Shown piece after piece: positions 4,383-63,139 of a stretch of 64,000 nucleotides of DNA (position 1 is its first letter; every line of letters begins with the position of its first letter). A program made the position numbers and the translations under genes. Source of the stretch: Cliona cf. orientalis (taxonomy: Eukaryota > Porifera > Demospongiae > Clionaida > Clionaidae); NCBI GenBank assembly GCA_963930775.1, contig OZ005707.1, positions 5,456,001-5,520,000 of the forward strand. The letters run 5' to 3'. Under the pieces are notes generated by a model. It was not told the origin of the DNA and ran no database searches. It saw only the letters and a program-made list of their open reading frames with translations.

Positions 4383-5428
4383 TTAGCTATAAGTATCTAC
4401 ATACTTAAAATTGGGATGCTGTCCCTTATAGAGTTAAAGCATACAATGGATCTACTTGTTACTAAACAATTGTTATAGCTACTATAATGACCTCCTGTTA
4501 CCTCCTGTTGGTTTGCTGTTGCTGTTTGTATAGCGAAGTGTATACCACCAGTACCTTTATTCCCATACTACTGCTACCATGCCAAGGGCTTACAGTATAC
4601 CTAGTAGCTACAGCAAAAATTCAAAATAGACATGTAGTTTGACTAATTATAGTAGCAGCTGCATGCTGTCTGGTAGCTACTGTATATGGATTTTTAGCCA
4701 ATTTCGCCAGCTGCCTAGTTACATGCCCTCTTCTCCTAAAGCCCTCCAACTATCAGTCAAAATGCTAGAAAACACTAAAATTCATATTGAATGGCTTTTA
4801 TTTTACCAACTGAAGCCAGCCACAACTGCAGGCTGCCCATCATGGGATGATAGTAACCACAGGATTGTATAAGATAATTGAGTAGCAATTACCTTAAGGA
4901 CAGGTTTAATTGCGAGTACTTAATTTTGCGATTTGGCTACCCCTCACATTTTGCTGGTACTAACCGGCTTGCAAAAAATCAACCACACCCACAATTATAC
5001 CAAAAGTAATGTTCTTCAACAATAGTATTGTTGTATAATACCAGGGGGCTTTTACGCGGGATGGTTACATTTCCGTGTGACGACCATTACCGACGGTCGA
5101 ATGCAACTTGGGCGCGCAATCTCTATTCTCTCGCTGGTTGTTTGGTGGGCAAAACTCGGCATAATATTATGACACAAATAGCTAGTTTGATTTTTATTGC
5201 ATAGTTGTTTCTAATTAATCGAATTTCAAAATTATATTTATGAAATATTATATTATTCGCGGGTATTAAGCCACGGTGTAGCGATTTTGTCATAAATCAC
5301 AAAATTCGCAATTAATAGTACCCGTTATTAAACCTATCCCTAAGGTAGCAAGCAGACTACCAGTAGACAGTTAGAAACTGATCCTAACATAGGTTCTAGT
5401 GCTGGATTAAGTTACATGTGTATGCATC
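4383..5428. other. intergenic spacer with one inverted-repeat element
   Basis: Apart from the element at 4890-5347 this holds AT-rich spacer. No coding sequence is supported. Confidence 0.5.
4890..5347. mobile_element. 458-bp terminal-inverted-repeat element
   Basis: The left end TACCTTAAGGACAGGTTTAA matches, inverted, the right end ...TTAAACCTATCCCTAAGGTA. The similarity continues inward over about 40 bp through GCGAGTACTTAAT. No ORF, so a non-autonomous element. Confidence 0.6.
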
Positions 5429-8400
5429 ATGGCATACTATGAACCGGAGGTTACACGTAGGTATGATTAGATAATTACAATGACTTTTGGTGTACTTTGC
5501 AGAGCATCATAACCCCAAGTTGGATTTTGCAAACTATATGACTCGTGAGCATCTAGATCAACAGGTCAGGCTTGCAATACACACAATAATGCTATTGTAC
5601 AAATTTAAGCAACACTGACTATCACCATGATGTTACAGTTGGGGATATTCCCTGAAGGAGCGGCCGAAAATGTTCAAAAGTCAAATCAAGAGCAGAATCA
5701 GTACTCACAGCAAGAGGTTAGATAGAAATTAATATCCAATAATAATGGCACAGCTAGTGTGTTTTTCAGCAATGAACGAACAACTTGAAGGCAGGTATAA
5801 ATCTAGTATAACGTGTACATTTCTCTAACCACAAAAATTAGCTAACTGTGTTACCCTCTACCAACCCTTTCCTTTTGAGGAAGAGAATAGACAATAATGT
5901 AATAATATCAAAGCACCACACTCACTCTAGTCAATGCCAATTATATCTCTAGCTGTCAGTCACGATCAGTGGAATCCACTAGTCATAAATGCTACATGCA
6001 GACTGTCAGTTTATCAGCCAAGATACTTGTGCTAGCTATAGTATCTACTCCAGTTGGATATACATAGCTAATGATTATGTAGATCTATACATAAAAAGCC
6101 TAGCTATGTGGTTACTTTCCTTGTTTCTAACTAGTAAGGGAGTTGCAAGTGGTTTTGCGTAACAGCTAGTGACCTTTGTTTCGTGACGTGTGTTCAGGCA
6201 CCCACTGAGTCTCCCAAGTCACAACCATCTCAAGCTCCACCTCCAATGAATTTCAAGCGACAACATAGCCCACCTTATACTGAAATTGATCCAGACCAGG
6301 AGATCCAGCTGGAGCCTCTTCCCATTCAAATGAGCAGTGCTACAGACAGTGATATGTGGGTGAAGGTGAAGCACAATGTAGCTGACCAACGACCACAGCA
6401 GCCCGATAGTATTAGACTAGGAAGAAGGTCATCTAGCACGTCAAACTTGACCAACGCGATGACAAGTGCTTCCGGCTCCGACTGCTTAGCCGAGCTGATG
6501 ATCAATGTTACGGCTCCAAGCACTCCAGGGTCAAATGGTCAGAGAAGACACTCATTCACCGAGGGGGATGGGAAGTTGATCATCAAGGCTAGTGCCGCCA
6601 ATAGGTAAGACAAGGGGCCATAATGATTGCAATTAAATTTTAAGGGGGACGAGAAGTTGATTAGTCCTATATCTTGTGGGTGTGATTTACATTATATTAT
6701 TAATACGTATAGTGCACATGCATCCTTATGCTTTTGTTACTCTCTAGCTAATCTTTGCTCACACAGTGACTCGATTATTCCCCTGGGTGGTCATGACTAC
6801 AAGAATATTAATCTTGATTTCGATGAAGGTGGACAACTGAACAATCTACGAGAGCCAGTGTTCCAACTACAGAACTGTCAGGTAAGAAAATTTAGTAGTA
6901 AATGCTACTGTGCATGGCAATAGAAAATATGCTCAACTTGTGCAGGGTAATGATGACCACATGAACAATGATGCTGAGGGAATTAAGCACTCATATATCA
7001 ATGAAAATGTCCTACTGGAGGAACTCGGCATGATAAGGGACACATCTGTAAGATCATAATAATATACCGGTTTCAATACCAGCATGTGTACAATGGTATT
7101 CAGCAAAACAAACTATTACACTTCTAGACATGTGCTGAGAACATGCCAGTAGCTGATCATGACGAGCCAGTGGAAGTTTCTTCAGCTGACTTCACACCCC
7201 AGAGAAGAGGTCGTGTGGGTTCAATAAAACCCTCCATCATCAAAAAAGTCTTGGAGAAAGTTGTGAAGCCCAAACGTCCACACTCAATCCTGTCGGGCAA
7301 TATCAGTGCAGAGCAGTGCAACGATGCACTAGCACCATTCACTATGACTGGAATTGCCATTGGACAAATCAATTGCGACTACGGGGCTTTCTTTAAGACA
7401 GCTTGGGGTAGCTCTCCTACATCAGCCCCCAAGACCAGCGCTGCTAACCTGCCACAGCCTCCTGTGCCCAGTGCAGCACTGGCGCAGCCCCCAGATTCTC
7501 CAGCAGAGAGCGAACACAGAGAGGAAAAGGTCAATTGCAATTGGCTACCATAATATGCATGGAGTTATTGTTAATAATTACCTCAGGTCAAATCAGCTTC
7601 ACAATGTTAGATTAAGCTGCATATTTGCTGTAAAGTAGTCTTTAATATGGACTTAGTGTAATTACCAATCCTGACATGTGTGTCATTTGCATGTACTATA
7701 TAGGAGCCTCGTTCCTCCCCTCCCGCAGGGGCTGTGAGACGCCCTCTCGCACTCAAACCGGAGAAGCCTTCAGCACCAACTTATGAGTGGAGAGGTAGCG
7801 TAAGTCATCAACTCTCGACCGCCTAAGACGTTCGGGACTGTAACTCGGGCTCTGTATACGCTATGAACCTCGAACAAACTCCATTCGGTAGATAATTCAT
7901 TTGTCTATTAAACGACCACTTACCATGTATGAATCTCGTTTCTGCAGGTCACTATGAGCGAGTATGTTAGACCATGATTTTATGAATTGGCGACCGTTTC
8001 CACCTGTTGTCGACCGCCCAGTAATTTGCAACAGCGCTAATGTCGACCGATGGCCGATTTTTATAATAAATGTGCATGCAAGTAGTAGATACTTAAGATA
8101 ATACTTTCATCATGATTATTACTTACTATTATCATAAATATCAAGTTTTCATATCGAGTGAAACTTTTATATATGCAGGATACACAAAATTAATACTATC
8201 GCCATACGTTCATAGTGTGTGGCAAAACGCGACCACACCCGAGACCACCGTATAGTAGATATCGGTCGACAATAAAAGGTGGTCGACTAATGATGACTTA
8301 CGCTAGGTTAGGAATTATGTGATGCATGATAATAATAGCTACACATATGACCTCCATACATGTGTATGCCACTAATTATTATTAGCTAGCTAGGGTAGCT

Positions 8401-11400
8401 ATATTCATTATTTGTAGCTACCATTCAATTTTAATACACATCATAATGGCAGGTCCTGGAGAGGAGAGGCCGATAATTCGTCAGATGAGAATCCCACCTT
8501 CCAGACCTCAGCCTCCTCGAGCTCCCAAACCTCAGCCTCCTCCCAACATGCTACGGAGGCCTCTATCTGAAGCAGTTGTACCCAAGCCCAAGCCCCACCA
8601 AAAGCCCTATCAGGATCCATCACCAGTCAAAGTACATCAAGTTACTCCCAGCACAGCCAAGGATACAATGCCGTACTGGTACAGACCACAGTACTCAAGA
8701 GTTGAAGCCGTTAACTTTTTGCACAGTCTTGATCCTGGCTCATTCATCGTACGCAACAGCAGCTCTGTTTCAGGAGGCTATGCTTTGACGATGAAGGTAT
8801 CACCGGAGCTTGTCAGACGGAGGAGGAAGATGCCTGAAGGTATCATAATTATCGTTGCAATGTACATGTATATATATATTAGCAATAATAATTATTAGTC
8901 ACTCTGCATGCATGATCTGGCACCTCTCCAACCCGATTCACTACATGCATGTGGTTCAAACCGCCCCACCTCTCTCTTCCAGCCACTACCTATGGCTCAT
9001 GCACAATAATATTATTAGCATTAATAATATTATGAACCCTTGACCATCTCCCCAGTAGCTGCACAGTGTAATGGTGCATGTGGTAAAAGGTCGTCAATAG
9101 AATGCGTACACATCGATCGATGCTGGCCCCAGAAATCATGGAGATGGCGTCTAAGATCGACTCTCAACCTTGGTAGCGACAGGTTTCGATGCTTCAATCA
9201 CAGAGACGAACTCGACAGCACAGTATTCCTTCCGAACTTCAGGTTGGTCGCGCTGCTGCAGTCTCGCGCGGGCCTATGGCGCGCCCCTTGTGCATGTGAC
9301 AATGATGCGTGCTATATAGCGCAAGGCTATCCACGCCATTACGTAAGCCAAGAAAACACGTGAAGTTCAACCAACAGTGCTTCTCAGAGAAAGTAGCGCT
9401 CAGCTTGTAATCTATTCGCTGGATACACGCGTAAGATACTCTACATATTTACTGACTTTCAAGTCCCAGAAAGGCTCCAGCGAGGCCCTGGGTTTTTTCA
9501 TAATTACCTCATAGGTTGCATCATAATTTCATCATAATTTCATCATAGATTACACCACAATTACCTCATAACCACAGAAAAGTAAATTGCTACTGGGGAG
9601 ATAATGAACAACTCAGAGACTACGTCCAGAGTCCATCATGGATACGCCGCCATAAATTCGAACTGGGACACATCGACAAACTGCGCATGCTCCGTATACG
9701 CGTACAATATTGGGGCGCGCGGCTTGAGCCGGTTGACCTTCACCTGCCATGTGCTCGACTGAATAGGGAAATCCCCCCCCCCCCCCCCCCCCCCCCCGAG
9801 TGCGAGCTCGCCAAAGAAAGCGAACCGAGAAAATCGCCATATCTCATCGATAGTCCACGATGTCTTCTACGCTAGGTTTGAATTCTGGGTCCCAACACCC
9901 TGTCATGTGAGCTAAACTTTTTGAAATAGTTTCACAGCAATTACATCATAGGTTTCATCATAAATTTCATCATAGATTTCATCATCATTTCATCATAATT
10001 TCATCATAGCGAGAGCCGAATTCTTAGTTTCTAATTGGGACTCTGGACGTAACGTAATTTAGAAACTGCATGATATGACACACTTCCCCATCCCATGCAT
10101 CCAGATGCTCCAGTGACTGAAGATATGTTAATAACCCACTTTCTCATCCAGCCAGACCCAGAGGGAGTTAAGCTGCAAGGATGGAATGAAAGAGCATTCA
10201 GTAAGGATAAAATATAATTATAGCTAATATTATATTATTACTACAGTAGATTGAAAGTTGGTCGATAGATTGCTATATCTAGTGTAAATATCAAAATGGG
10301 TCATGGACTCGCTCATCAGAGTCACATCAATTAATGCAGTGCTAGCTTGTGAACTTTAGTAATTCATTGAAGTGCTCCTCAAGCAACTCATAGCTACTCC
10401 CAAAAATGCATAAAACATACTGAAAAGATATCTTTACAGTTGGGGGGATCCTCCAATAAGTAGCCTGCTCATTTCCAACTTTTCAATGCATGCTGAAAAA
10501 GCTACTCATAAGATCGACGAGCATAAGTATCTCACAAAATCAACTACCACTGGCAGAGACATTGCCAGAGTTCATAGCCCATCACACTGTGGAGAAGCTG
10601 TGTCTTCCTTGCAAACTGGTGCTGCCTAAATCCTCTGCTGGCAGTGGAGGTGTCCCACAGGTCAGGAGAAAACCAGCCGGGATGAAACAAGCTCTCCAGA
10701 CTGGAGCAGGTGAGCTATGTGTGTGTGCGTAAATTCCTTTTTAATGTTAATAATTATAATATTGTATGCAATACTATATCATGCATGTATTATGTTATAT
10801 AAAGATAATCGGAGTCCATAGGATCCATGGTTGAATGCACTCCATCCCGCCTAAGAGTGATTTCAAGTTAAGTCATTGGCCCATGACTGACTGTCTTTCA
10901 TCACTGGTACCATAAAATTAATCAGATATTCCTCTGATGTAGCTGAGGATTTTTAAGTTCACCAAAACTATCTAATTAAAATAGCTTTTATGTGCGTACA
11001 TGTATGATATTATTGTGTATGTTTTGTCAAGCGTGGATGAAATGAAGTCCGTTTTTGTTCAGGCATGGCCTGTACATGTACGTTTACTCTATTATAATGA
11101 GAGAATTTGAAATATCCTTCCTCCCCTTCACAGTGTGTGAGCTGGTGTACCTGGGGAGTGTTGAGGTGTCTGGGCCAGGCAGTGAGTCTGTGGTGAGAGA
11201 GACAGTGGAGCAGCTGAAGACACTCGGACTCTCCACTATGAATATTGTCACGTTCAAAGCCTCCATGAGTGGCATCGCACTCACAGAGGACATTAATGGG
11301 TAAGGAAGGCCTGCTATAGAGATTTACCATAATATTATCACAAAACACAATATTTGTGTATGTGCTTTTGGAGGCAGATATTCAATATTATTCTACATCC

Positions 11401-13468
11401 ATAGCACACCAATTAAGGTGGGGTGAAGAGAAAGAGACAGCAGATCTTAAGATTTGGACATTTTTGGACTCCTATGCCTCTCCTTCTTATATACAAGAGA
11501 TAATTATCGATTTGCTATTGAATTTGTAACTGCAGTCTAGTGTGTCTGGCTTTGCATGGAGATATGCACCAAATAGATTATATACACAATGTCATGTACA
11601 CCAGTTATATTATATACATGTGATACAATGCTGAAAGTAACACATCCACATTATTTTATCATAATGTTGGGGGATTTAATTACACTTCCCACCTGCCACA
11701 CCTAAATGGGACACTATAGCATCTGGACTAGCATATAGACACTGGTCATTCTAACACTTTTGTATGCATAATTATTATATGTACACACACACACTCATTT
11801 TTCACAGAATGTATATCAAGCGACAGTATCCAATATCTTCTATTACCTACTGTGGCCTTGATCCCAACGACACCAGGTAATGCTTTGTCCTCACCTACTA
11901 CAATATTATTAGTGCATGACACTTTATGCATGCATGATTATGATGTGCCTCATATAATGCTGTGTAGTCTGTGTACATGACCCATCCTCAGGCAAAATGA
12001 CTATATAGTTTGTAATACAAAGAGAAATGTAGTATCTGAACACAATAATAATAATATAATTATATTATATTATATATATCAGGCCTTCATTTAGAAACTT
12101 TCCCAAGGGGGGGCACAGCGAGCTAGTATGACATCAAGGGGGGGCAAGACTATTTTCCGTGCACACGATCTCTAGGGGGGTCTGGGGGCATGCTCCCCCA
12201 GAAAATTTTTGCATTTTGGACTCCCAGAGATTGCGTCTAGTGCACTCTCAGGCACTACATTTTGAATACTTAATATCATGATTATTATTCACGTTAGGTG
12301 ATTTCTTGACTTTATGCGTGTGATAATACCAGCTTTATAAGGGGGGGGGCGAGAGTTTATCAAGGGGGGGCGAGTGCCCCCCCCCCCCCTGCCCCCCCTA
12401 AATGAAGCCCTGTATATATATCGCACTAGAATCTTGCTCCACATCTCCATTGCAGTCATAGGAATTAATAGTATCTGAACACAATAATAATATCGCACTA
12501 GAATCTTGCTCCACATCTCCATTGCAGTCATAGTATTACTAAAAGAGTGAATTTCCCGTAACTGTGCACCATCCATCTAATAGCCAGTGTTGGTACAAAG
12601 GATAGTAATAACAGTGGTACTACACATAAATCCAACAACAGTTTGGTTGCCATAGCAAACCAGATTGAAAAGTGACTATTAATTTGTCAACTGCTTGACT
12701 CAAGATTCTTGACACTCTATGGTGTGCCTTGTCACCATATGAATTCTGTTTCACACATGTATGCAAACACTGTCAGGTGGGACTTCCCAAATCTACAACA
12801 CCTGGGAGAAACAATTTCCCTCTCCAACAAACAGTAAGCATTGTACTGCCATGGTAGTAGCTAGATATCCAAGAATTAGGCATTACGTGGTTTTATCACA
12901 TTTACTATAGTATCCCTGGGCATGTGCCCACTCCTGGGTGCATGAGTATGGCATTCTAACACTGACAAAATTGGCAAGCTCAAATATATGGTCAAACTTG
13001 AGTCAGATATAATATATTATGGTCAAACTCAAATATGTGGTCAAAATTATTGTTGCCGATATAATATGTTGTATGGTCAAATTTTAAACTCAAATACATG
13101 GTCAAACATAAGTTATGGTCATTTTGTATTTCACCATGTATTTGAGCTACTGAATGCCCATATATTATGGTCAAACATGCAGCAAATATATGGTCAAAAT
13201 TCAAGAAGATCCCCTTACATAATAGTCACGGATATGACGTAAATTATTAAATATGTGGCAAAGTTTATATATCCCAGCTGTTCTTCTCTTATCCTTGTAT
13301 TCCATTCCATTCCATTCCATTCTATAATATACTAATAGGTGTTTTGGTCTTGTACTTCGACCTCCTGACAGCACGGGCAACTCATGCTTGGTGTTTGGGG
13401 AGTTTGACTCCTCCCAGCCCGTGACATCAGTAGTCAATTACCTTCAGAGAGTAATGAGAAGCAGATGA
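5429..13468 (+). CDS. tensin-like adaptor, SH2-PTB type (copy A)
   Basis: Focal-adhesion-type adaptor: in tensins the SH2 binds phosphotyrosine and the PTB binds integrin tails. Exons: 5429-5456, 5503-5564, 5639-5716, 6198-6604, 6767-6881, 6946-7047, 7128-7529, 7704-7794, 8453-8839, 10105-10200, 10557-10709, 11134-11299, 11808-11876, 12777-12833, 12911-12937, 13339-13468 (TGA). They sum to 2370 nt with every phase matching, giving 789 aa. Residues 1-500 are disordered, Ser/Pro-rich. The SH2 is at about 503-613 (MPYWYRPQYSR, SFIVRNS, LPEFIAHH) and the PTB at about 643-785 (CELVYLGSVEV, ITYCGLDPNDTR, CLVFGEFDSSQPV). No PTP/C2 head is visible, so the layout resembles vertebrate tensin-4 (Cten). 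The first exon is short and its ATG (MAYYEPEVT) is the least certain part. Confidence 0.85.
7797..8304. mobile_element. 508-bp inverted-repeat element abutting an exon donor
   Basis: Ends AGCGTAAGTCATCA and TGATGACTTACGCT are perfect inverted copies, with GGTCGAC-type similarity inside. It begins two bases after the exon 8 donor GT of tensin-like A, so the donor (gtagcg) is partly element sequence. Possible TA target duplication. No ORF. Confidence 0.65.
8840..10104. repeat. large intron filled with repeats, including TTTCATCATAA arrays
   Basis: Intron between the two SH2-coding exons of tensin-like A. Two clusters of the 11-mer TTTCATCATAA occur near 9519-9570 and 9940-10015. Inverted copies of ACGTCCAGAGTC (about 9624 and 10044) suggest an element around 9620-10055. 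No exon is supported inside. Confidence 0.5.
9773..9797. repeat. C25 homopolymer
   Basis: Uninterrupted run of 25 C inside the repeat-rich intron. One of several long G/C tracts in this otherwise AT-rich window. Confidence 0.9.
12080..12412. mobile_element. 333-bp inverted-repeat element with TATATATA target duplication
   Basis: Ends CAGGCCTTCATTTAG and CTAAATGAAGCCCTG are inverted copies with one mismatch. Both sides are flanked by TATATATAT. The interior is G-tract-rich with no ORF. An 8-bp duplication would fit hAT-type elements, but the AT-repeat flank makes its length uncertain. Confidence 0.65.
12975..13203. repeat. degenerate ATATGGTCAAA repeat cluster
   Basis: About nine copies of a word near ATATGGTCAAA, spaced irregularly within the last intron of tensin-like A. 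Chance ORFs on both strands here come from this repetition. Confidence 0.6.
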
Positions 13469-15015: not shown

Positions 15016-18000
15016 ATGGCCAAACGCACTGAGGAATATCTTGCGATGATCAAGGCCACCGTTCGGCTCACAAATGCCGTGAAGAACGAGCTGACCCCGC
15101 TCAGCCAGGAATTGGTGGCAAGAGAGCTAATCAGTGTGGACCAGGGAGTAGAGCTGAGGAACGGGAATGTTGGTGCAGTAGACAGAGCAGCAAATCTTGT
15201 TGCATTGGTCACTAATAAGGTGGGGCAGGATAGGAAAAATTTCTATTGTTTTGTTGAAGTATTGACTGACAATCAAAGTGTATACAAGGAGATACTGGAA
15301 GACCTACAGCCAATCTATAAGACAGGTATTCATGTAAATTTTTGAGAAGTAATTGTGCCTTATATATTGTGATATAATGCCTTCCGATAATATGAGTGTG
15401 CCTATCCTATGTATTTAGCTATCAGTTCATATCACTACATGAATCAGATTTACAGGCTACGGAGTCAGACACTTATGATCTTGTATTTAAATTTCAGGAA
15501 ACCATGTATACAATAAAGGTGCTCGTGCAATACTGACTATTAGGCAGCCATGGTATCATAAGAGATTATCAAGAGAAGATGCAGAGAGTAAACTGGGAGA
15601 TGGGGGCACAGACTCTTTCCTGGTCAGAGAAAGTGCACAGGAAGTTGGAAAATTGGTGCTTTCTATTAGAAGTGGTGATAATTTCTTTCATTTCCCCATC
15701 AAGCGTGGTGTTGGGTCATATCAGGTAGAAGGAACTGAAGAGCCATTTCCATCACTGATTGAGTTGATCGATCACTACGTACAACACGGCCTACCTGAGA
15801 GTGATAGTGGGGAATTGGTGACTTTCAAATCACCTTGCATTTGTGATGCATCTCTGGTTTCAAGTAAGTAGCTACAAGCAAGTGTCCTAAACAGTTCTAA
15901 TGATTCAGAAATCCCAATTACATATCCCCAGTAGCAATTTAATTTACTTTTCTGTGGTGTAAGATAATTATATATGGGTCATTACAGGGGCGGATCCGGG
16001 GGGGGGGGTCATGGGGGGCAGATGACCCCCCCTTCCACATATTCCAGGGCTGAATATCTTGTACCAGCTTGCTGTGCTTGGCTAAACAGCCAGCTTTACC
16101 ACCCTCCCTTCAACTAATGAACCTTGATCTGACACAAAATATAGCTAGAAACCTGTTTGTACGGTGAGAAAGTCGGGCTCCATTGACATCTTAGGCTGTT
16201 TGTCTCGTTCGCGGCAACGATGTGGGCGTGGTTTTTACGAAAATGGGCGTGGCCAAAAATTTAGTGCGCGCTTCGCGCGCGATTATTTAATATTTGACCC
16301 CCCCAACTTGATATCCTGGATCCGCCCCTGCATTAGACTAATTATAAAGCAATAGATTCGGTGCTTTCTAACCATTAATTTTAAATTCACAACTAAATCC
16401 CGTAAGAGGAAGTATTACATGGCCTAGATGGACCCAAATAATTATGAGTATAATAATTATATATCTAACAAATATTATTATAACCAGTGAATACCTTACA
16501 AGCAGTGTGTTACTTTCTCTGATGAGTATGGCTGGTCAAACTTCATGCGTTCCATTGGCTTACGTAATCCCATGTACTAGCTAGTGCTATTATAGCGCAA
16601 GCCATGCATGCTTTTTAATGTCTGCCACAAGTGATCTGTACTACATGCCGAATTTGTCTCTGTGTGCTTGAAGCATTGAGATAGGTTGATAGTCGGTCTC
16701 AGACTCTGTCTCTATAACTGTGACCGAGACATTAACTGTATAGACTGCATTTGTGTATGCACTATAATTATTGATGACCTTTACCATAATATACACCATC
16801 AACTATCAGGGCCGTAGGAGCCGGTCAGGCTGGTCAGGCCATGGCCTGGCCACTTTTTGATCGATTTTTAGGTAAAGATCGTCATAACTTCCTTGTGCGC
16901 ATGCGCAGTGGCTTTCCCCATCAAATCTTGACTATTTTGTAAGTGATTTAACTCTTGTCTTCCACCAAACTCCTTGTACTATCTAATTCTCTCATCATCA
17001 TAGATTATGAGCCTGACCACTACATTTTTGCTTCCTACGGCCCTGACTATGCAGCTATTGGGATGTGGTAAAGTACTTCATAAAATAATAATTATTATAT
17101 ACATGACTGTGCTGTGGTCCAGAGAGCAACAATGGTGAAGCCTCTACTTCTAGTCTCCATAAACCAGGGAGTTCTTCCTCAGAATATACATATGTCGATG
17201 TCACCATTAATGAAAGGTATGCTATAGCTACTGATCTGATCGAGTGATTTGTACGTAACCATGTCGTTATCACTATATAATTTCTACAAGTAAGGGGAGC
17301 TTGCTTTACTCGCCTCCTGCTGCATCCGATCATAATATACTTCTGTATTCATGCTATATAACAGTGCTGTGTGAGAACAAATGTTATAAGCATAAAAGAT
17401 CATACTGGAAAGCCAGAAAGTTTGGCAGGAACCAGTGAAAACAAAATATTGGCAGATTTTAATTTGGCGGATGACCGAGTTTGATCTAGCCACGATCTGA
17501 ACCTGCTGCATACACATGTGTGTTTGAGATCATTGAGAGGAGTGGCTTGCTAGATCAGTCCAGTTCAATCGAGCAAATTGCATGGAGCACTGCATATATA
17601 TATATAGTGGTGTCATAGTATTTCGACTTCAACTATCAGTAAGAGATTATCCTGCACCAAAAGAGAAACAAAAAAACGAACCTTGAAGGATTGGTACTAG
17701 TCTCGCGTGCCACACCCCCCAATCTGAGGGAAAGAGGAGTCTGGTGACCATGCATACAACGAGTTGTTCTGGCGACAGGATTTGGTCACGTCTCTTGAGA
17801 TTGAAGGGTGTGGCTAGCGAGACTAGATCGGTACATGGTAGAAGTGATTCAAATGAGTGATATCAGGCACCAAGTTAGTGCAAAGACCACACCCACCAAT
17901 TTGCTTTGTAATGCGCGATTGCCTTCGTCTGTGCAAAAAAATATAGGAATATAGTTTGGCGGCTAGTTGGCTGATCTGTCGAACCGCCAAATTTAATTCC

Positions 18001-18500
18001 CCACCAAATTTTCCGGCTATATGGCAGTAAGGTTAAGGAGAGAGTATAGCAGCACATACATGATGTCCGTAATTTTGACATGCTGCATGTGCGTTACTAC
18101 ACAGCCAAATATCATTCACTCATTATCTAGATGTGAAGGCAAGAAGCAAAGAACAAAGAACAGTTTTAAAGGGCGGCCACATATATACCTAGCTGCTGTA
18201 CTGACACCCGCGACCAGAATCAAAGTGAGATTAAACGATCAAGCTGTAAATTGGAGATGATCAAGCGATCAAGACATCTGTTTGCGTTACTCAATCAAGG
18301 TTTGTCCTTTGACTCCACCCACACCCCTGCCCCAGTTAGCAATCAAGGGTCAAGGCTCTTTTAGCTGTGCAATCCAACGATCAAGGTCCAAAAATGGGCC
18401 CGATCAAATTTTGATCCCGGTCGCGGGTGTCAGTACAATCATGTATCTAGTAGATTGCAATTGATCATGAGTGATTTATTTGTATACCTATTCTAGCAAT

Positions 18501-18538
<38 letters not shown>

Positions 18539-21500
18539 TCTGTGACACTTGTTGACAACCATGTACTTATGAGTCGCTTAGATGCCTAGATCTCGAGATT
18601 TGGCGATTTTTGTGTTGACAAAGAGACAGACAGATGCTGATTGCTTTACCCCTTGCTGCGCTTGCACGTGTGGAGCAATTATGAACAGGCATGAGTGGCC
18701 TAAGGTAGTATAATATGAACTGGTAAAGATTGTCGACATGATCTAAATAATGTTTATGGCTATACTGTTTGGCTGCTAGCTATCTGCTGACTGAAATGTG
18801 AATTCCTATGGAACCAAATCTGACTAACAAAAATGTAGGTAGTAGCAGTTCATATCTTCCTAGTCTAGATCTGGTACAGAGAGAGAATAAGTGGTTTTTT
18901 GGCTGACATCACTGGGAGTCCTGTAACCATGTCTGAGCATTTCTACTATTTTTCTTAAATTCACAAAATTTTAACCATGCAGACAAAAATAGATCTACAG
19001 ATTGCGCAATTTGCGCACGGGGTATGTGCTCTACAGAGTTCTGGTATATAGTCGGTACAGAAGTATTGCTATGCTGCCATAAAATCAAGCCAAGATCATC
19101 ATTGGCTTGGTTTTATGGCAGCGTAGCTACTTGTACAGTATAATATTATGTAAATCATATCTTGAATAATTATTAATAATTTTGGAGTGTATCCATCATA
19201 AACCAATCTTATGGATGATATCATGAGATATTGGTCTGATTCGCCTCGATTTATTAACCATACTTGAAATTAAGCCTACTATTTGAATTTCTGAGGTGGT
19301 ACGTCAATAAATACTTTATGCATATACGTGCACTCACACACAATGTCATACATGCACTCACTGCATACACACATGTATGTGCCCTCACATACATATACCG
19401 GTATACTCTCTCACCAGTCAAATTATGGCGATGGGAATGACAAGGGAGGAGATTGCACACCGAACGAAGGAGAAGGTGATTACTAAGTCAGAGAGCATGT
19501 ACAATACACTCTATATCACTCTAGGAGAGGAGAGTGGCATGGATCAACCGTAAGTCAACATCGTGAAGATGAAGTAGTCTAGTACATCAAAATTAGATCT
19601 GCCTAGTTGCTATTGTGGTGTAATAGCTAACTATGTTGGCCAACTCTTATTGATTGTACCTACTGCAAGGCCATGTATGCTTTCCAGGGGTGTAGATAAC
19701 TATTTGTTGTGGAGGGGCTTGTGTTACCGTGCCCATTTTGAGACCATGCACTTCTAGTCATTATTGTATCCCCCCCCCCCCCCGTTGAGGTCACTTATCT
19801 TATTTGCGTTAGTACATAATAATAATTATTGTTATATAAACATGCTGTAGTGATTATTTCATCATCGTGCTCAAAATTTTCCTGTTCTGTATAATTACAG
19901 TTTGACTTTTGTGAAGTGAAAGTGACTGCACGTCGTATGCAGAGATCTAGAGTATCTGGTATAATCCGAGCGAAAGAGGCTCATCAAACACCCCCCCCCC
20001 CCCCAGATCTTTTCCTCATGAACTATGTATAATACCAAGCCACTGTTTCATAATTTGTTTTGCCAGAATAAGCCACTTTCTCAACTATCTATAGCTAATA
20101 CAACTGCCATGGTAGCCTTCCCCCATTATCTACACCCTAACTTGCTTTCTGCTAATGTGCTCAGTACTTACGTGGTATAGCTAGCATACAGATCTGTATA
20201 CCTTGGTAAAATTTGTCATTATGCCTGCAAATAGGGATGAAATCGCTCCTGATATTGTACCAAGTGATCTCCCACGTTCCCGACGCCCCCCAGTGCCAAC
20301 TCCAAGGTGGTCAAGTGGGAAGAAAGTGTTACCGCCTCCCAGCCCCCCTCCAATACCACTGGTAAGTCAGCAATAAAATCATTGGGATGCATGGTTGATT
20401 GTTTAGAGGCCGGATAAATAGCTTTTGATGCCCTGCAAACTAGCCATGCCACTTGTGCAATAGCTTGGTGAATGGCTTCATGTTACTAGACCAATTTTTT
20501 GATAGCCTCTCTTCCCAATTTTTAATAATATTAATTTTACCCCGCACGCATGTGCAAGGGGTAAAGTAATCAGTTTATACATCTGTTATCATCATTGTCT
20601 GCACAAAAATTCATGCTGTAAGCACAATGAATCGGTAAAAACTGGTTTCTACACGCTTCGAATTGGTGAAAATGGCTTACTAGCACTACAAATCGTGCAT
20701 TTCCTGTTCACTATCCCTGTGATTTATTGACCACACCAATGTGCTGATGTGACTGCCGCGGCATGCTTCAAGCTCAGTGAAGAAAAGGGTTGTCAAATCA
20801 TATAATAATTATTATAACAGCTCTGCAGTGGAGTATTGGCAATACTTCACTATAGTGGCTACTGTGCACGGGGTATGTGCTCTAGAGAGTGAAATATGGG
20901 AGTGGCCTGGGGATGAGGCTATACTTGCAATTTTGTATAGCTACGTTGTACATGTAGATTATTATTGCACTTGACTGTGTATTTTATTAATCTTATTTCC
21001 ACAGCTAACTGGTGAAAAACCAAAGCCTCATAAACCTGGTAATGCACCCACACACGCTAGGGTATAGGATTAGACACCATTACTCTAACAGTATAGCTAC
21101 TTATCTCAAGTTTTGTTATGTAGCTATACATCTACCGTAGTGTCCCGCATGGGTACTTAAACATAACTTGCGATTTTGGGCGCTTACCCGGGATATAACT
21201 TTCATACGTTTGCATAGAAGCTGCTACATTGTACATTGACCACTTGAAACGAGCTACGTGCATGTCTGTCTCTATCATCATGATAATAATTATATTATTA
21301 TAGATGTAGTACTATAACAGCATTAATAGTCATGATGCATGGTTAAATGTAGGTAATGGAGGGAGGTCCTCAGGCCATGGCTCATACAGGCTCTACATGT
21401 ATAGCGTTACACAGAGAGTACATGGCAATATCAGCATGTGCATGCTCACAGCTCATTGCAATAATTATCAATGTGCGCATGCTCAACGTTCATTCAGCAA

Positions 21501-24500
21501 GAAGCTGATGCTGCTTATAATAATATGAGCAATGTGTAGCAGCCCTTCTCATGTGATTGCTGCTTGATATTGAGGACCTCCCACCAGTAGGGGATGCACC
21601 AGCAACAAATGATCTAATGCAATGTAGGACATTAATGGCAGATTGATGTGTATGTCACTTTCTTTACAAATGGCAGGTCATGGAGAAGAGAGGCCAATAA
21701 TTAACCAGAAGCCCACCCCACCTCCCAAGCCTCAGCCTCCTCCCAACATGCTACGGAGGCCTCTGTCTGAAGGCACAACCAAGGCCCTGATGCCCTACTG
21801 GTACCGACCACACTTCTCAAGAGAGGAGGGCATCAGTTTCATCCGCAGTCTAGACCCAGGTTCATTCATTGTTCGTGACAGTGTGACCATTCCAGGAGGC
21901 TACACTTTAGTGATGAAGATATCACAGGAAAATGCCAGACAGTGGAGGAAGATGACTGAAGGTATCATGATCATCATGACATTAGGTGTTTGGTAATTAT
22001 TGTATTGGGAGCCATTTCACAGGATTAGTTTGTAGACACACATGATTGTGCAAGCCACCAAGGGCTTATAGCTAGATGCTATATACCCATCCCTTGATGC
22101 CACTATGTGCACATACGAATGTGCTTGTTCATTTCCATTATCCCAAACCGCAAACCACTTAAATATTTTCTGTTATACAGTAATAAGGCTCAGTAGAAAT
22201 TGATTTTGTGCCAATGGAATGTTAGTATTACAGGCCCAGCCCAGTTTACTACTCTCTCTTTCAGCCACTGCATGTCTATGGGCCAGGCTCATGCATGGTC
22301 AATTTAGAAAGTTGTTGTATGACTGAGGTGATCGATACTCCCCCATCCATCCATGCATTCATTCCAGCTGCTCAAGTGACTGAAGACATGTTGATCACCC
22401 ATTTTCTCATCCAGCCTGACCCAGAGGGAGTCAAGCTCCAAGGATGGAATGAAAGACCATTCAGTGAGGCTATTAATTTTACAAATATAACAGATTATAA
22501 GTTAACTGACTGAGTAGTTGTTAGTGCAAAATTTCAAATTACTACATGCACTGGCTATTTTTAGTTAAGTCAATTCAGAGACCGAGTGTGAAGTATAGCA
22601 AGTGTTTTGATTGAGTTTACATTTGTAGGATTATAATATAACCAGTGGCCTGGGAAGTTGAAGTACTAGTATGGTTTACATAGTTATATACCGTGATTCA
22701 CAAAATTTTTGTTGTCAAGTTTTGCATAAAGTGACTACACGTAAATTGTTCACCTGTACTAACTTATACAGAAATATAATTATTATGGTGCACATTTGAT
22801 ATTGATGAAAATTTCTAATACAAACGAAATTAACACAAATTAAGGCATCTTTTGAGTAGTACTAGTCTTGTTCCCTCCAGTGTGTAACATTAAAAAGGTA
22901 GGAATGGGCCTGGGGATGAGGATAATATCCTAGTAAGTATAATAATGTACACTGTATATCATTATAGCTATAGTATTCCCCATGAGGAGATGGGAATAAT
23001 TATTGTTTGGGGAACACTTCATAAAGCCTAGTGTATGACTTGATGTCACTCTGCATGCAGAGTCATTGCCGGAGTTCATAGCCCATCACACTGTGGAGAA
23101 GCTGTGTCTTCCTTGCAAACTGGTGCTGCCTAAATCCTCTGCTGGCAGTGGAGGTGTCCCACAGGTCAGGAGAAAACCAGCCGGGATGAAACAAGCTCTC
23201 CAGACAGGAGCAGGTGAGAAAACTAATTTATGCATTGTATTAATTTTAGTACACTGGAGCCATCTTTCTATGATATTATGCAATGTCATGCATGCATTAC
23301 TAATCAGTATTTATAGTATACAAGAAGGTGATCAGAAATGAGTGCAGCTTAAACTTTCATTTTTGTATCAATTATTTAATTTGTCCTGGCCCATGCACCT
23401 ATATCTGCTTCCGTAATGTCCCTATTAATGTTCATAATAATAATCCTCTTGTTAACTAGACCTATTTGTTGCACTAACTCCTATGATTATTCATTTTACC
23501 CCCATGCCATTTCTTTATGGAATGACCTTCCTAACACTCAGCTGTTACAAGTGCAACATCACTGTCTATTGTAATTAAGTTCTTATTATTACCTTACTAA
23601 TCTTGTACAATAGCTAGTGGGTACATACTTGTATTAGTGTTTTGCTATTTTATGTATCCATGCATATGATCATGCAAAAGTAAATTTTCCTTCCCACACC
23701 CCCACACCAATGTATCCATCAGTATATGGATGTGAGCTAGTGTACCTGGGCAGTGTTGAGGTGTCTGGGCCAGGCAGTGAGTCTGTGGTGAGAGAGACAG
23801 TGGAGCAGCTGAAGACACTCGGACTCTCCACTATGAACATTGTCACATTCAAAGCCTCCATGAGTGGCATCACTCTCACAGATAACATCAATGGGTAAGG
23901 AAACTTGCTATAGAGATTTATCATAGCACAAACCACAATATTATTTGTGTATGTGTTTTTGAGGCAGATATTCAATATTATTTTATATCTATAGCACACC
24001 AATTAAGGTGGGGTGAGGGGAGAGAGACAGCAGATCTTAAGACTGGGACATTTTTGGACTCCTATGCCCCTCCTTCTTACAAGAGATGTCCATTAATTTG
24101 CTGTTGAATTTGTAACTATAATCCAGTGTGTCTGGCTTTGGAGCACCAAATAGATTGCACAATATCATGTACACCAGTTATATTATTATACATGTGATAC
24201 AATGCTGAAAGTAATACATCCACATTATTTTATCATAATGTTGGGGGACTTAATTACACTTCCCGCCTGCCACACCTAATTATAAATGGGACGCTATAGC
24301 ATCTGGACTAGCATATAGACGCTGGACATTCTAACACTTTTGTATGTATAGCTATTATTACCATCATTCACGAACCTTACATACTGTTACATGCTTTTAT
24401 ATGTACACACACACACTCGTTTTTCACAGAATGTACATCAAGCGACAGTATCCAATGTCTTCTATTACCTACTGTGGCCTTGATCCTAACGATACCAGGT

Positions 24501-26030
24501 AATGCTTTGTCCTCACCTACTACAATATTAATGCATGATATTATTATAATAATTATACGTGATTATGATGTGCCTCGTACAATGTTGTGTAGTCTGTGTG
24601 CATGCATGTACATGCTCCATGCATATTCAGGCAAAAATAGCTATAGTTTGTATATTGTATATAATACAAAGAGGAATGATCAGAACACAATAATATTAAT
24701 ATCGCACTAGAATCTTGCGCCACAATCTCTAGTCACAGGAATTAATAGTACCGTAAATCACGAATATTTCGATGTTAAAAATATTTTCGGACAGCATGGC
24801 TTGTGCGAAAATTAAACGCACAAATTACATGCGCAATACTAACGACAACGCGGTACAGGGTCGTTTGTCCGAAAATTATTTAACGCGAAAAATTATCGCA
24901 TGAAATATTATAGACACGAAATATTCGCGATTTACGGTATTATCCGATGGTCCTATGATTAAAGAGACAAAGCATGAATAAAAAAAATAAGATTCCAAAT
25001 CTTAGCCCAGGCACCAACCAATGAAACAAATACAGAACTTTGGTTAAAAAGACAAGAATACCTATGGATATGCCGACTAGGCACCCTAAGCAAACTCAGT
25101 AATAAAGGCCTAAACAAATTAATATACGACCCCACTGTTATTTATTAAGTGTGTTAACTGCTTGACTCAAGAGCCTTGATACTCGATGTCATGGTGTGCC
25201 TTTGTCACCACATGATCTCTTTATTTCACGCATGTACATTGTATGCAAACACTATCAGGTGGGACTTCCCAAGCGTACAACACCAGGGAGAAACAATTTC
25301 CCTCTCCAACAAACAGTAAGTATTGTATACTGTCAGTATCACTAGCTGCATGGTAAATATTGCTAGTTAGACACCAAGGATAAGGGATCTATGATATTTA
25401 GTATCCTGATAGCGCCCTGAGCTGTGACACCCGAGTGTAGTGAGGGTGTCACTAAGGGGACAGAGGCCCAGAGGATGCCACCATTGGCCAAGGTGAGCTA
25501 AATTATTTAGAGTTTTACAACTGTTGCTATAGTAGTACAGCTATTGCCTTGGAGCTCTAAATTAATAATACCATGGATCCTATTGGCCAAAAAATTCACA
25601 AGTAATTACCTAATTAAAACCTACAAGTAACTAAGCTATTTAGTTACTTCCTATTGACCAATCAGCTGCAGATTAATAATATTATAGAAAAGTGGCAGTA
25701 ATTAAAAATTCTAAGTAGCTATACATGTACAACTCCAAGAATTAGATTAAGTGGTCTAACTCTTAATTAATCTTATCACATTTACTATAGTGTCCCCGGG
25801 CATGTGCCCACTCCTGGGTGAGAGTACCATTTTTCTTCAAGGTGACTTGACTAGTCAGATAGCCTTGTATTCCATTCCATTCCATTATATATACCAATAG
25901 GTGTTTTGGTCTTGTACTTCGACCTCCTGACAGCAAGGGCAACACGTGCTTGGTGTTTGCGGAGTTTGACTCCTCCCAGCCTGTGATAGCAGTAGTCAAC
26001 TACATTCAGAGGGCAATGAGAAGCAGATGA
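15016..26030 (+). CDS. chimeric CARD-SH2 / tensin SH2-PTB adaptor
   Basis: Exons: 15016-15325, 15498-15863, 17123-17216, 19418-19549, 20235-20361, 21005-21038, 21677-21961, 22368-22463, 23061-23213, 23723-23894, 24430-24498, 25259-25315, 25791-25817, 25901-26030 (TGA). The sum is 2052 nt, 683 aa, with all intron phases agreeing. Residues 1-103 look like a CARD/death fold. An SH2 follows at about 122-215 (DSFLVRES), then a YTYVDV exon, one exon matching the last inter-SH2 exon of the third copy (MAMGMTREEIAHR), a proline-rich exon, and LTGEKPKPHKP. From 21677 on it is a tensin-type SH2 (about 396-505, SFIVRDS) and PTB (about 533-680). The p85-type nSH2, most of the inter-SH2 and the cSH2 are gone. 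Alternative: the tensin tail is a separate 5'-truncated gene. Phase continuity favours one gene. Confidence 0.7.
15985..16330. mobile_element. 346-bp inverted-repeat element, CATTA repeat at both sides
   Basis: Ends CAGGGGCGGATCCGG and CTGGATCCGCCCCTG form 15-bp inverted repeats with one mismatch. CATTA flanks both sides. The interior has GGGCGTGGTT and a CGCGCTTCGCGCGCG palindrome, motifs also found near 46330 and 50870. No ORF. Confidence 0.75.
16807..17045. mobile_element. 239-bp inverted-repeat element, ACTAT target duplication
   Basis: Ends CAGGGCCGTAGGAG and CTTCCTACGGCCCTG are inverted copies. ACTAT is repeated at 16802-16806 and 17046-17050. Same third-intron... position class as its neighbour at 15985: both lie in the second intron of the chimeric gene. 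Confidence 0.75.
17699..17825. mobile_element. 127-bp TAGTCTCG-family element, 9-bp target duplication
   Basis: Inverted arms of about 28 bp start TAGTCTCGCGTGCCACACCC. Flanks GATTGGTAC (17690-17698) and GATCGGTAC (17826-17834) differ at one base. Ends match the 13567-13926 element, so the two are likely one family. Confidence 0.75.
18198..18436. mobile_element. 239-bp inverted-repeat element
   Basis: Left GTACTGACACCCGCGACC and right GGTCGCGGGTGTCAGTAC are perfect inverted copies. The interior repeats CGATCAAG. No ORF, and no clear target duplication. Confidence 0.65.
18501..18537. repeat. G37 homopolymer
   Basis: Longest homopolymer in the window. It lies in the third intron of the chimeric gene. 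Its exact length is doubtful, since sequencing and assembly handle such tracts poorly. Confidence 0.8.
19068..19127. repeat. near-perfect 26-bp-arm hairpin
   Basis: GCTGCCATAAAATCAAGCCAA pairs with TTGGCTTGGTTTTATGGCAGC across the loop GATCATCA. Pairing continues outward with small mismatches (GAAGTA/TACTTG). Two G:T-type mismatches lie in the stem. Could be a foldback element or an RNA hairpin. Confidence 0.7.
20538..20895. repeat. dispersed repeat, ACCCCGC...GGGGTATGTGCTCT type
   Basis: Starts TACCCCGCACGCATGTGCAA and ends CACGGGGTATGTGCTCTAGA. The same start and end occur at 53868-54525. A rearranged copy with an inverted 5' part lies at about 18560-19050. No ORF conserved among the copies. 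Confidence 0.6.
24749..24939. mobile_element. 191-bp inverted-repeat element (CCGTAAATC ends)
   Basis: Ends TACCGTAAATCACGAATATT and its inverted copy, probably with TA target duplication. A related element is at 47969-48140. The paralogous intron of tensin-like A (near 12470) continues ATTAATAGTATCTG without it. Confidence 0.75.
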
Positions 26031-26675
26031 CAATAATTATATCATGATCATTATTTCAGGCGCCTAGGTATTTTCATTATTTTTCATTGTGGATTACTCT
26101 ATGATGTTATAATGTGCTGAAATTTCTTCTTTATCTCTGTATGTTGTGTGATGCAATAATTTTATATTATTCCTCACTTTTGTTACCAATAAATGATGAG
26201 GCATGAAATGAATAATAATTATATTAATAACATGCAGTTTAGAAATTCCAGGTAAGAAACAATTATGTAGCCTAAGTATATTAAATGCTATGTAAAGGTT
26301 ATATAGCAGCCTTGCTAGAGTAGCTACCAGAGAAGAATATTGATAGCTGCTTAGTAACTCTCAGCTACATAGGCTAAGTGGCTGTTGACATCCAGTGACT
26401 CTGACCCAATTCAAAAGTTTGGAACTACTAAGTAATAATATTATTACTTGCTAAGAGTGATAAGCAATTTTAACTGATTTCTCTGTATTGCATGCGTTAA
26501 ATGTTGGTTTTGCATATTGTTCAGTACATGCATACAATCGTGTCATGACATTGTGAAAGCTTATATAATATTATTATAGTGAAATTTTGTTCAGTAGCTA
26601 TAGCTACAATAATATTATATGCTTTTAAACGAGTCTGGTAGCTACAATTGATCAAAGAGACAGCAGTAGCTAAGT
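26031..26675. other. spacer and duplicated 5' flank of TKL kinase 2
   Basis: The first half matches the region after tensin-like A without the 360-bp element. The last 135 bp match the flank of TKL kinase 1 (3121-3230). No gene seen. Confidence 0.55.
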
Positions 26676-54757: not shown

Positions 54758-54796
<39 letters not shown>

Positions 54797-62223: not shown

Positions 62224-63139
62224 GTAAGTCATGATCAACAAAGGACAATAATTGGAACGGGGGGGGGGGGCAATACCAAAACCATCTGACTGTCAGCAAA
62301 GGCACAGATCTAACTGAATCAGTATAGTCATGCATGACATATCGTGACCCAAACAGCTAAAACGTATGCTCTGCTTGATTTACTTCTTGTTCTACAGCCA
62401 GGAAACCTCTTCCCTGAGCCTCAATGATGCAAAAATGGGTGTGTTTCGAATGAAATATGGGGGTTTTCGTGTGCACTTTGTGTGCAGTTATCTTTAGACC
62501 CTGTACACCATATGGTGAAGATGTGTTCTGCCTATGCTACTGCACGTAATAGCTAACTAGTTATCCTGCATGAATGCAGAAGGGGTAAAGTGATCGGTTT
62601 GAACGTCTAGCTGTCCTGTACTGTCTCATTGTCGGCATTAAAATTGCCAGATCTTGATATTGTAGGTGAATACATGTACCGTATCCTCCTGAAAATAAGC
62701 CCCGCCTTTTTCAGCAGTAGACATGACCTAGACTAGGGAGGGGGCTTATTTTCGAATATGCACTTTCCCTCGAATATAAGCCCCCCTCTGTGAAAGCAAC
62801 AACGATCATGATCCATTTGCAGTCGCCGTGTGGAAGGACGACACCATCGTTGGTCACGTGCCGCGGGAAATATCCAGAGTTTTTCTTCAAAATAGTGACA
62901 GCGAGATGACCTGCTAAGTAGACAGCAACAGACGACGATCGGCGGTGGGGAAAGGACTTGTTGTTCCGTGTGTGTACGTCTTCAGAGGAAAGCAAAAGCA
63001 TCTTGACCGGCTCATAAGTGTCTTCGCCAAGCTAGAAGTGCCATCATAACAGAGTGACTTCAAACCGGCTTTTCTAAAAGCCACCACCATACAAAAGATT
63101 CCTCTTTGTACTGTCATGCAACTAATGGTCCCCCCTACA
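62224..63139. other. repeat-rich region after the last iSH2 exon
   Basis: G10 tract at 62261-62270. A repeat starts near 62683 with CCTGAAAATAAGCCCCGCC and has an inverted relative GGGGGCTTATTTTCGAATAT at 62741. No exon matching the proline-rich or cSH2 exons of the sister genes is seen. A CAG-CCAGGAAACC acceptor near 62400 is unconvincing. Confidence 0.45.

What the first reader, a model, noticed from the sequence alone, without database searches (positions are those of the whole stretch)
15016..26030. Fused gene: CARD-like + SH2 head joined to a tensin SH2-PTB tail
Fourteen exons keep a single reading phase and total 2052 nt. The join lies between the exon ending at 21038 (LTGEKPKPHKP), which resembles the start of the p85-type cSH2 exon in gene 2 (50000), and a tensin-type SH2 exon at 21677. 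Both sides are phase 1, so the fusion needs no repair. I know of no animal protein with CARD, SH2, SH2, PTB in this order. It could link death-fold scaffolds to phosphotyrosine and integrin-type NPxY targets.
Basis: partly seen in the sequence, partly recalled or inferred. Interest (0 to 1): 0.9.

Follow-up and report, generated by a model that had tools for sequence, protein, structure and literature searches.

The report
Sponge CARD–SH2 head on tensin tail
In a sponge-like genome a tandem gene cluster holds what looks like a genuine hybrid gene that joins the front of a PI3-kinase-regulator-like gene (a death-fold CARD plus a phosphotyrosine-binding SH2) to the SH2–PTB end of the adhesion protein tensin, although no RNA yet shows that the two halves are read as one.

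Summary
The 14-exon, 2052-nt model (15016–26030) is real as DNA: one open frame, GT/AG throughout. Exons 1–6 are paralogous to the p85-like genes E and F (CARD-like, SH2, end of iSH2, proline linker, start of the cSH2 exon); exons 7–14 to the tensin SH2–PTB tails of B, D and the canonical tensin. p85 homology stops inside an exon at ~21035; tensin-tail homology starts at 21669. Neither half keeps its own missing partner nearby, no AATAAA/ATTAAA lies in between, and head and tail show purifying selection on this gene's branch. A fusion is the best reading. Corrections: the donor at 21038 is new and scores below all 38 comparison donors; p85's own donor has the wrong phase; linker exons 3–5 are barely constrained. 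Exon 2→7 is also in frame (554 aa), so CARD–SH2–SH2–PTB does not depend on that donor. CARD rests on sequence profiles, not structure. Sister genes join the CARD–SH2 cassette to p85 and to an IRS-type PTB, and a kinase to the tensin tail. No RNA was available.

The parts
15016..15325 (+). gene C exon 1: start codon and CARD-like domain (103 aa)
   Evidence: 93 and 97% identical to the heads of E and F; Pfam CARD E=0.0041 alone, 15 of 25 family members match CARD at E<=5, best 1.4e-6; family profile hits ICEBERG CARD E=6.4e-4 and Apaf-1 CARD E=0.011
15498..15863 (+). exon 2: first SH2 (SH2a), motif FLVRES
   Evidence: Pfam SH2; best solved relatives SHP-2/SHP-1
17123..17216 (+). exon 3: linker with EYTYVDV tyrosines
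   Evidence: paralogue of E and F exon 3; acceptor weak (-6.31)
19418..19549 (+). exon 4: remnant of the last iSH2 exon of p85
   Evidence: matches F exon 62101-62223, 64% identity
20235..20361 (+). exon 5: proline-rich linker
   Evidence: matches F exon 65006-65123, beyond the window end (L037)
21005..21038 (+). exon 6: first ~30 nt of the p85 cSH2 exon, ending at a new weak donor CTG|GTAATG
   Evidence: homology 20991-21035 to E 49986-50036 stops here; donor score 0.76
21039..21676 (+). junction intron, holds the breakpoint; dispersed repeat about 21125-21264 and an inverted-repeat-ended stretch 21354-21589
   Evidence: no AATAAA/ATTAAA here
21677..21961 (+). exon 7: proline linker and N-terminal half of the tensin SH2 (FIVRDS)
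   Evidence: homology to B begins at 21669~8445; tensin-2 SH2 2kno E=8.9e-21
22368..22463 (+). exon 8: tensin SH2
   Evidence: paralogue of B 10105-10200
23061..23213 (+). exon 9: end of SH2 and linker
   Evidence: 98% identical to B over 162 nt
23723..23894 (+). exon 10: tensin PTB
   Evidence: Pfam PTB; tensin PTB 2gjy/1wvh
24430..24498 (+). exon 11: tensin PTB
   Evidence: 100% identical protein to the canonical tensin copy
25259..25315 (+). exon 12: tensin PTB
25791..25817 (+). exon 13: optional 27-nt microexon shared with B and D
   Evidence: canonical tensin tail lacks it
25901..26030 (+). exon 14: PTB end and stop
26188..26193 (+). AATAAA, candidate poly(A) signal 158 nt after the stop
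3231..13468 (+). gene B (comparator, parent type of the tail): kinase (best solved match IRAK4), linker, tensin SH2-PTB, 16 exons, 1160 aa
26676..44354 (+). gene D (comparator): same type as B, PTB exon disrupted near 32033
45052..51717 (+). gene E (comparator, parent type of the head): CARD-like, SH2, SH2, cSH2, no iSH2
53334..64000 (+). gene F (comparator): CARD-like, SH2, nSH2, iSH2, cSH2; runs on to 68653 in window coordinates (L037)
   Evidence: Pfam SH2 x3 and PI3K_P85_iSH2 E=1.2e-17

Best explanation
Gene C is a real chimeric gene made inside a tandem array. SHOWN at DNA level: a p85-like gene of the E/F type, carrying an N-terminal CARD-like + SH2 cassette, is cut inside its first cSH2 exon and followed by the SH2-PTB tail of a B/D-type tensin-derived gene. 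Its nSH2 and almost all of its iSH2 are absent, as is the kinase-plus-linker front of the tensin-derived gene. INFERRED: one transcript spans the join, either as the 14-exon form (683 aa) or as the exon-2-to-exon-7 form (554 aa), and makes a CARD-SH2-SH2-PTB adapter with no catalytic domain. INFERRED function: SH2a and the tensin SH2 bind phosphotyrosine, the tensin PTB docks on NPxY-type tails, and the CARD-like domain gathers partners that carry the same domain, including the nearly identical CARD heads of E and F. Lacking the iSH2 coiled coil that binds p110 (recalled knowledge of p85), it should not itself be a PI3K regulatory subunit. It would act as a scaffold, or as a competitor of F, linking death-fold signalling to adhesion or tyrosine-kinase sites.
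For: Exact open model. Paralogy of each half and the switch at 21035/21669. No match to B's kinase/linker exons, and none to p85 nSH2, cSH2 or the rest of iSH2 other than C's own two SH2 domains and chance-level rows, between 13470 and 26100. Domains; CARD profile. Changes on the C branch: tail 14 nonsynonymous/15 synonymous over 758/229 sites, head 6/10 over 522/153 sites (3 and 1 multi-change codons set aside); binomial p = 8e-4 and 7e-4. Pairwise dN/dS: head 0.10-0.32 (C against E and F), tail 0.30 (C against B and against the canonical copy). No AATAAA/ATTAAA starts from 20373 to 22888, one at 26188; reading through 21038 meets a stop about 27 nt on. Exon 2->7 also in frame.
Against: No RNA evidence. 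The junction donor (0.76) is below all 38 training donors, and 20 of the 37 GT sites in 21006-21675 score higher. 4 of 13 acceptors are below the training minimum, exon 3's by far. Linker exons 3-5 show near-neutral rates against F (dN/dS about 0.76-0.88). Part of the C-branch changes may predate the fusion, and gene conversion with B (98% block) can mimic constraint. The AlphaFold model of the head has pLDDT 52 and no useful match. Assembly error at the join cannot be excluded without reads.
Confidence: 0.65

Rival explanations
1. Two neighbouring units: a truncated p85-like head that ends by read-through after exon 6 (...PHKPGNAPTHARV stop) or within an earlier intron, and a separate tensin-tail gene started by its own promoter in 21040-21676, using an internal ATG before the SH2, like a short tensin-4-type protein.
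For: The junction donor is weak. Read-through of 21038 gives a stop about 27 nt downstream. The tail exon has an in-frame ATG before the SH2 (NMLRRPL). Each half is constrained.
Against: No AATAAA/ATTAAA starts between 20373 and 22888. The tail keeps a splice acceptor and phase shared with B. In B the tail follows upstream exons in frame. An in-frame exon 2->7 splice with a strong donor (10.25) is available.
Confidence: 0.22
2. A decaying by-product of the array: the join is a recent deletion with no stable product, on its way to a pseudogene like gene D.
For: Gene D next door has a frame-breaking insertion in a PTB exon and an 11-kb intron stretch with nested transposons. Linker exons 3-5 are nearly unconstrained and several splice sites are weak.
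Against: No stop or frame break in 2052 nt. Purifying selection on the C branch in head and tail.
Confidence: 0.1
3. Assembly artefact: two loci of the array wrongly joined in 21036-21668, where dispersed repeats lie.
For: The junction intron holds a repeat that accounts for 38 of the 40 listed genome matches (702 candidates, 40 scored) and an inverted-repeat pair. The array is repetitive.
Against: The listed matches to the p85 body show no orphan cSH2 end: each sits in E, F or a C15 copy. The repeats do not sit exactly at the two homology limits. Orphan kinase/linker exons were not searched genome-wide.
Confidence: 0.06

Closest known systems
Tensin (canonical copy of this genome, C19:5168616-5172555 for the tail; vertebrate tensins)
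   Same: SH2-PTB tail; PTB exon 11 identical at protein level; tensin SH2 and PTB are the only solved matches at E<=1e-5 (7 of 7)
   Different: Upstream of the canonical tail lie frames with C1, phosphatase-like and PTEN_C2 matches (not assembled into one model); gene C has CARD-SH2-p85 remnant instead
p85 PI3K regulatory subunit (C15 copy here; gene F; Amphimedon P0071)
   Same: Exons 3-6 of C match F/E; exon 4 = end of iSH2, exon 6 = start of the cSH2 exon
   Different: C lacks nSH2, almost all of iSH2, and cSH2. The C15 copy matches P0070 from its SH3 end onward and one search lists no CARD match on C15 (150 of 213 candidates scored)
Tensin-4 / cten (short SH2-PTB tensin)
   Same: SH2-PTB without PTP/C2 in the listed domains; P0057 and P0059 among the hits
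   Different: No CARD or second SH2 listed in front
Amphimedon p85-like protein P0072
   Same: CARD-like head found by the family profile (i-E 4e-5 among 189 proteins) on a p85 body
   Different: Only the two p85 SH2 and no PTB in Pfam, so no SH2a next to the CARD and no tensin tail
Gene G, C19:5398854 (CARD-SH2-IRS-type PTB)
   Same: Same CARD-SH2 cassette, 55-65% identical, followed by a PTB-type domain
   Different: IRS-type PTB (PF02174) instead of tensin SH2-PTB

Membership tests
Tensin family | C-terminal tandem SH2-PTB of tensin type | tested here: met
   Pfam SH2 and PTB; 2kno, 1wvh, 2gjy among 7 of 7 tensin matches in solved structures
Tensin family | N-terminal PTP-like and C2 (tensins 1-3) | tested here: not met
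   Pfam on the whole protein lists only SH2, SH2_1 and PTB
Tensin family | binds integrin NPxY tails / sits at focal adhesions | not testable with these tools
   needs binding assay or imaging
p85 PI3K regulatory subunit | iSH2 coiled coil that binds p110 | tested here: not met
   PF16454 found in F but not in C; only the last iSH2 exon remains
p85 PI3K regulatory subunit | nSH2 and cSH2 flanking iSH2 | tested here: not met
   no nSH2/cSH2 exons found between 13470 and 26100
CARD superfamily | sequence profile match to CARD | tested here: met
   family profile: top 4 of 11 PDB rows are CARD chains (ICEBERG 6.4e-4, Apaf-1 0.011, 0.011, 0.05); the other 7, E 0.13 and up, are not. Pfam CARD in 15 of 25 members at E<=5, best 1.4e-6; the C head itself 17.6 bits, below the 23.9 cut-off
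CARD superfamily | six-helix death fold | tested here: inconclusive
   model has six helices but pLDDT 52.4; best Foldseek match E=1.9 and not a CARD
functional fusion gene | single mRNA across the join | not testable with these tools
   no RNA data
functional fusion gene | open frame and purifying selection on both halves | tested here: met
   linker exons 3-5 are near neutral

The most novel reading that the evidence does not exclude
This sponge lineage runs a small gene factory in which a CARD-SH2 cassette is joined in turn to an IRS-type PTB (G), to a p85 body (E, F) and to a tensin SH2-PTB tail (C), while an IRAK4-like kinase is joined to the tensin tail (B, D). Gene C would then be one member of a CARD-assembled set of scaffolds that share one oligomerising head and route death-fold/innate signals to PI3K, to docking sites and to integrin-type NPxY sites, with C as the branch (or brake) that lacks p110 binding.
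Probability: 0.3. Interest if true: 0.8.

Novelty: new variant of a known kind. Interest (0 to 1): 0.62.

Why it matters
If the fusion is transcribed, it is an animal protein that puts a death-fold interaction domain, two phosphotyrosine readers and an NPxY-type PTB on one chain, and a case in which both parent types lie within about 60 kb and their canonical relatives are identifiable in the same genome. That makes the birth of a signalling adapter by deletion in a tandem array directly testable. It also suggests that in sponges death-fold and IRAK-like modules were wired onto tyrosine-kinase/adhesion adapters, something I do not recall from better-studied animals.

Tried and rejected
Rejected: that the chain is a chance string of exons (each exon has a paralogue). 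Rejected: that the p85 exon's own donor was reused (it leaves phase 2). Rejected: hidden nSH2/iSH2/cSH2 or kinase/linker exons in the introns of C. Led nowhere: family search PF08416 in the own genome (the 14 control genomes did not ring either); protein search with the CARD head of F alone (215 candidates, none at E<=10); AlphaFold model of the head from three near-identical sequences and its Foldseek search (uninformative); bacterial promoter scan of the junction (no meaning here). The breakpoint could be placed only within 21036-21668; repeats there do not prove a mechanism. Literature: searches (PMC open-licence library only); no listed title or abstract start speaks of a CARD-SH2 or CARD-tensin protein; 'SH2-CARD'/'CARD-SH2' gave 0 papers, and CARD domain + SHIP1 + invertebrate + SH2 domain gave 0. 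Passages only were read in PMC12909245, PMC3507883 and PMC5978004; the rest were seen as search listings.
Full report
Setting. The window is C19:5456001-5520000 of an unnamed 216.8-Mb genome in 149 contigs. Its p85-like gene F finds Amphimedon queenslandica proteins as the best named hits (P0071, P0072), so I infer a sponge, probably a demosponge; the species is not known to me. It is not Dysidea avara as published, whose assembly is 575 Mb (PMC12909245, passages).

The observation. Rebuilding the gene gave the same 14 exons and 2052 nt, one open frame, with GT/AG at each of the 13 introns. The first exon-13 border that I tried carried a stop and was corrected to 25791-25817. Outgoing phases are not uniform; 'single reading phase' holds only in the sense of one continuous frame. 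Pfam finds two SH2 and one PTB above cut-off in the whole protein and no CARD.

The array. In order: A (SH2 then tyrosine-kinase exons; an IRAK-like kinase frame lies just upstream of the window; not modelled as one gene); B 3231-13468, a complete 16-exon gene of 1160 aa with kinase, long linker and tensin SH2-PTB; C, the finding; D 26676-44354, of B type but with a 5-nt insertion in a PTB exon near 32033 and nested transposons in an intron; E 45052-51717, CARD-like-SH2-SH2-cSH2 without iSH2; F 53334-68653 (past the window end), CARD-like-SH2-nSH2-iSH2-cSH2. The kinase of B has IRAK4 as its best solved match (E 6e-23), with an EGFR entry (1.9e-22), CTR1 (5.6e-22) and LIMK1 (6.1e-22) close behind, so 'IRAK4-like' is a loose label.

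What the halves are. Exons 1 and 2 of C are 93-96% identical in nucleotides to E and F. Exon 3 matches their exon 3, exon 4 the last iSH2 exon of F, exon 5 the proline-rich exon of F at 65006 (L037), and exon 6 the first part of the cSH2 exon. Exons 7-14 match the tails of B and D and, except for the microexon, of the genome's canonical tensin at C19:5168616-5172555, minus strand. Upstream of that canonical tail on the same strand lie frames with C1, phosphatase-like and PTEN_C2 matches. The own-genome search with the tail found 26 matches, which I assign to four genes: B, C, D and the canonical tensin. Other p85 copies lie on C15; the main one matches P0070 (SH3, SAM, C1, RhoGAP, SH2, iSH2 in Pfam) from its SH3 end onward, and the CARD search lists no match on C15 (150 of 213 candidates scored).

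The join. Blastn aligns C to E in two blocks of intron and exon, the last ending at 21035 (E 50036), that is, inside the p85 exon. From 21669 C aligns to B (8445) and from 21670 to D (30291). The region 13470-26100 gives no match to the kinase/linker part of B, and no nSH2, cSH2 or other iSH2 exon of p85; the SH2-like matches are C's own two SH2 domains, the rest proline runs and chance-level rows. So neither half has its own partner left there. The donor at 21039 is new: the p85 exon leaves phase 2 in E and F, and only the truncated exon leaves phase 1. Scored against 38 donors from B, E and F it gets 0.76, below the lowest training donor (1.9); 20 of 37 GT sites in 21006-21675 score higher, and the ten of these that were listed all leave another phase or follow a stop. 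Four of 13 acceptors of C are below the training minimum of 3.9: 17123 (-6.31), 20235 (-1.74), 22368 (3.4), 23723 (2.56). A second in-frame route exists: exon 2, with a strong donor (10.25), also ends in phase 1, and exon 2->7 gives 1665 nt, 554 aa. Exon 1->7 is open too; joining after exon 3, 4 or 5, or skipping exon 3 alone, is not. The junction intron holds a dispersed repeat and an inverted-repeat pair; the breakpoint lies somewhere in 21036-21668.

Is it used? No RNA was available. Indirect tests: polarised changes on C's own branch (single-change codons where the two paralogues agree; 3 tail and 1 head multi-change codons set aside) are 14 nonsynonymous and 15 synonymous for the tail (758/229 sites) and 6 and 10 for the head (522/153 sites); binomial p 8e-4 and 7e-4. 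Pairwise dN/dS is 0.10-0.32 for the head (C against E and F) and about 0.30 for the tail (0.33-0.45 in its first exon, 0.09-0.27 in the rest). Exons 3-5 against F are nearly unconstrained: 0.169/0.223, 0.252/0.333, 0.231/0.264. Gene conversion with B (98% over 162 nt) and changes older than the fusion limit these tests. No AATAAA or ATTAAA starts between 20373 and 22888; one starts 158 nt after the stop.

CARD. The head belongs to a family with many copies: 112 matches genome-wide with the 225-aa CARD+SH2 query, of which by my count 98 lie on the CARD part (the tool calls such counts lower bounds). Thirty matches were fetched as loci. Among 27 of these (L004-L030, 1.5-kb flanks), an SH2a match was found only in loci of this C19 region: L004, L005, L007, L008 and L009, the last being the SH2 of A. 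L006 is gene E, whose SH2 lies just outside the held flank. A profile from 25 members (3 window heads, 22 from loci; A1) has CARD chains as its top 4 of 11 PDB rows, ICEBERG (E 6.4e-4) and Apaf-1 (0.011, 0.011, 0.05); the other 7 rows, E 0.13 and up, are not CARDs. 15 of 25 members match Pfam CARD at E<=5, best 1.4e-6, while the C head itself scores E 0.0041, under the cut-off. The structure model is poor (pLDDT 52.4) and its Foldseek search useless (best E 1.9, no CARD on top). I call it CARD-like with good sequence support and no structural test.

Function. SH2a keeps FLVRES and is closest to SHP-type SH2 among solved structures. The tail SH2 keeps FIVRDS, and the PTB aligns along the tensin PTB. 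Tensin PTB domains can bind NPxY motifs, and tensin SH2 domains can bind phosphorylated and unphosphorylated ligands (PMC3507883, passages). From this I infer an adapter. Because C shares its CARD with E and F but lacks the iSH2 that in p85 binds p110 (recalled), it could bring F-type PI3K to adhesion sites by CARD-CARD contact, or compete with it. That step is inference only.

Novelty. One search with the C protein over about 5.8 billion proteins (7996 best candidates scored) gave 69 hits: P0001 covers 43% of the query and most tensins 42%, as the tensin tail would, and no listed domain set shows the full order. A search with F (7993 candidates scored) listed 120 of 773 hits, best query coverage 62%. 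Among the 189 proteins returned in the two searches, the CARD family profile finds one above inclusion, P0072 of Amphimedon, on a p85 body; the next is at E 0.48. CARD-on-p85 may therefore be a wider sponge theme; CARD-SH2-tensin is known to me only here. None of the titles or abstract starts in the paper searches speaks of it. I rate it a new variant of a known kind: a domain-shuffled adapter.

Noticed in passing
3231-13468: Gene B: complete kinase (best solved match IRAK4) + linker + tensin SH2-PTB, 1160 aa in one frame over 16 exons; itself an unusual kinase-tensin combination.
   Followed up: partly
26676-44354: Gene D: B-type paralogue with a 5-nt insertion in a PTB exon near 32033 and, in an intron, Helitron frames (34379-36571, 41406-43121) around an LTR retrotransposon frame (37245-41219, minus; Ty3/gypsy-like by my recollection of its domain order).
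   Followed up: partly
53334-64000 and on into L037:1-4653: Gene F: CARD-like-SH2-nSH2-iSH2-cSH2, a p85-like PI3K regulatory subunit with an extra death-fold-SH2 head; gene E (45052-51717) is similar but lacks iSH2.
   Followed up: partly
L031:2854-5507 (C19:5398854 and on): Gene G: same CARD-SH2 cassette followed, in phase 1 by my reading of the sequence, by an IRS-type PTB exon (PF02174, E=3e-10).
   Followed up: partly
L036:8385-9536 and window 1-2780: Gene A region: IRAK-like kinase frame followed by an SH2 and a tyrosine kinase (HRDLAARN); whether these form one gene was not tested.
   Followed up: no
genome-wide, e.g. L010-L030: Large family of CARD-like domains (98 of 112 matches by my count), only weakly seen by Pfam CARD.
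   Followed up: partly
P0072 (Amphimedon queenslandica): CARD-like head on a p85 body in a named sponge, suggesting that death-fold-PI3K links recur in sponges.
   Followed up: partly
25791-25817 (and 12911-12937 in B): 27-nt microexon in the PTB of the array copies; the canonical tensin copy lacks it; splicing may be optional.
   Followed up: partly
10553-10714 and 23057-23218: 98% identity block between B and C tails next to a 73% identical SH2 exon: patchy similarity that suggests gene conversion.
   Followed up: no
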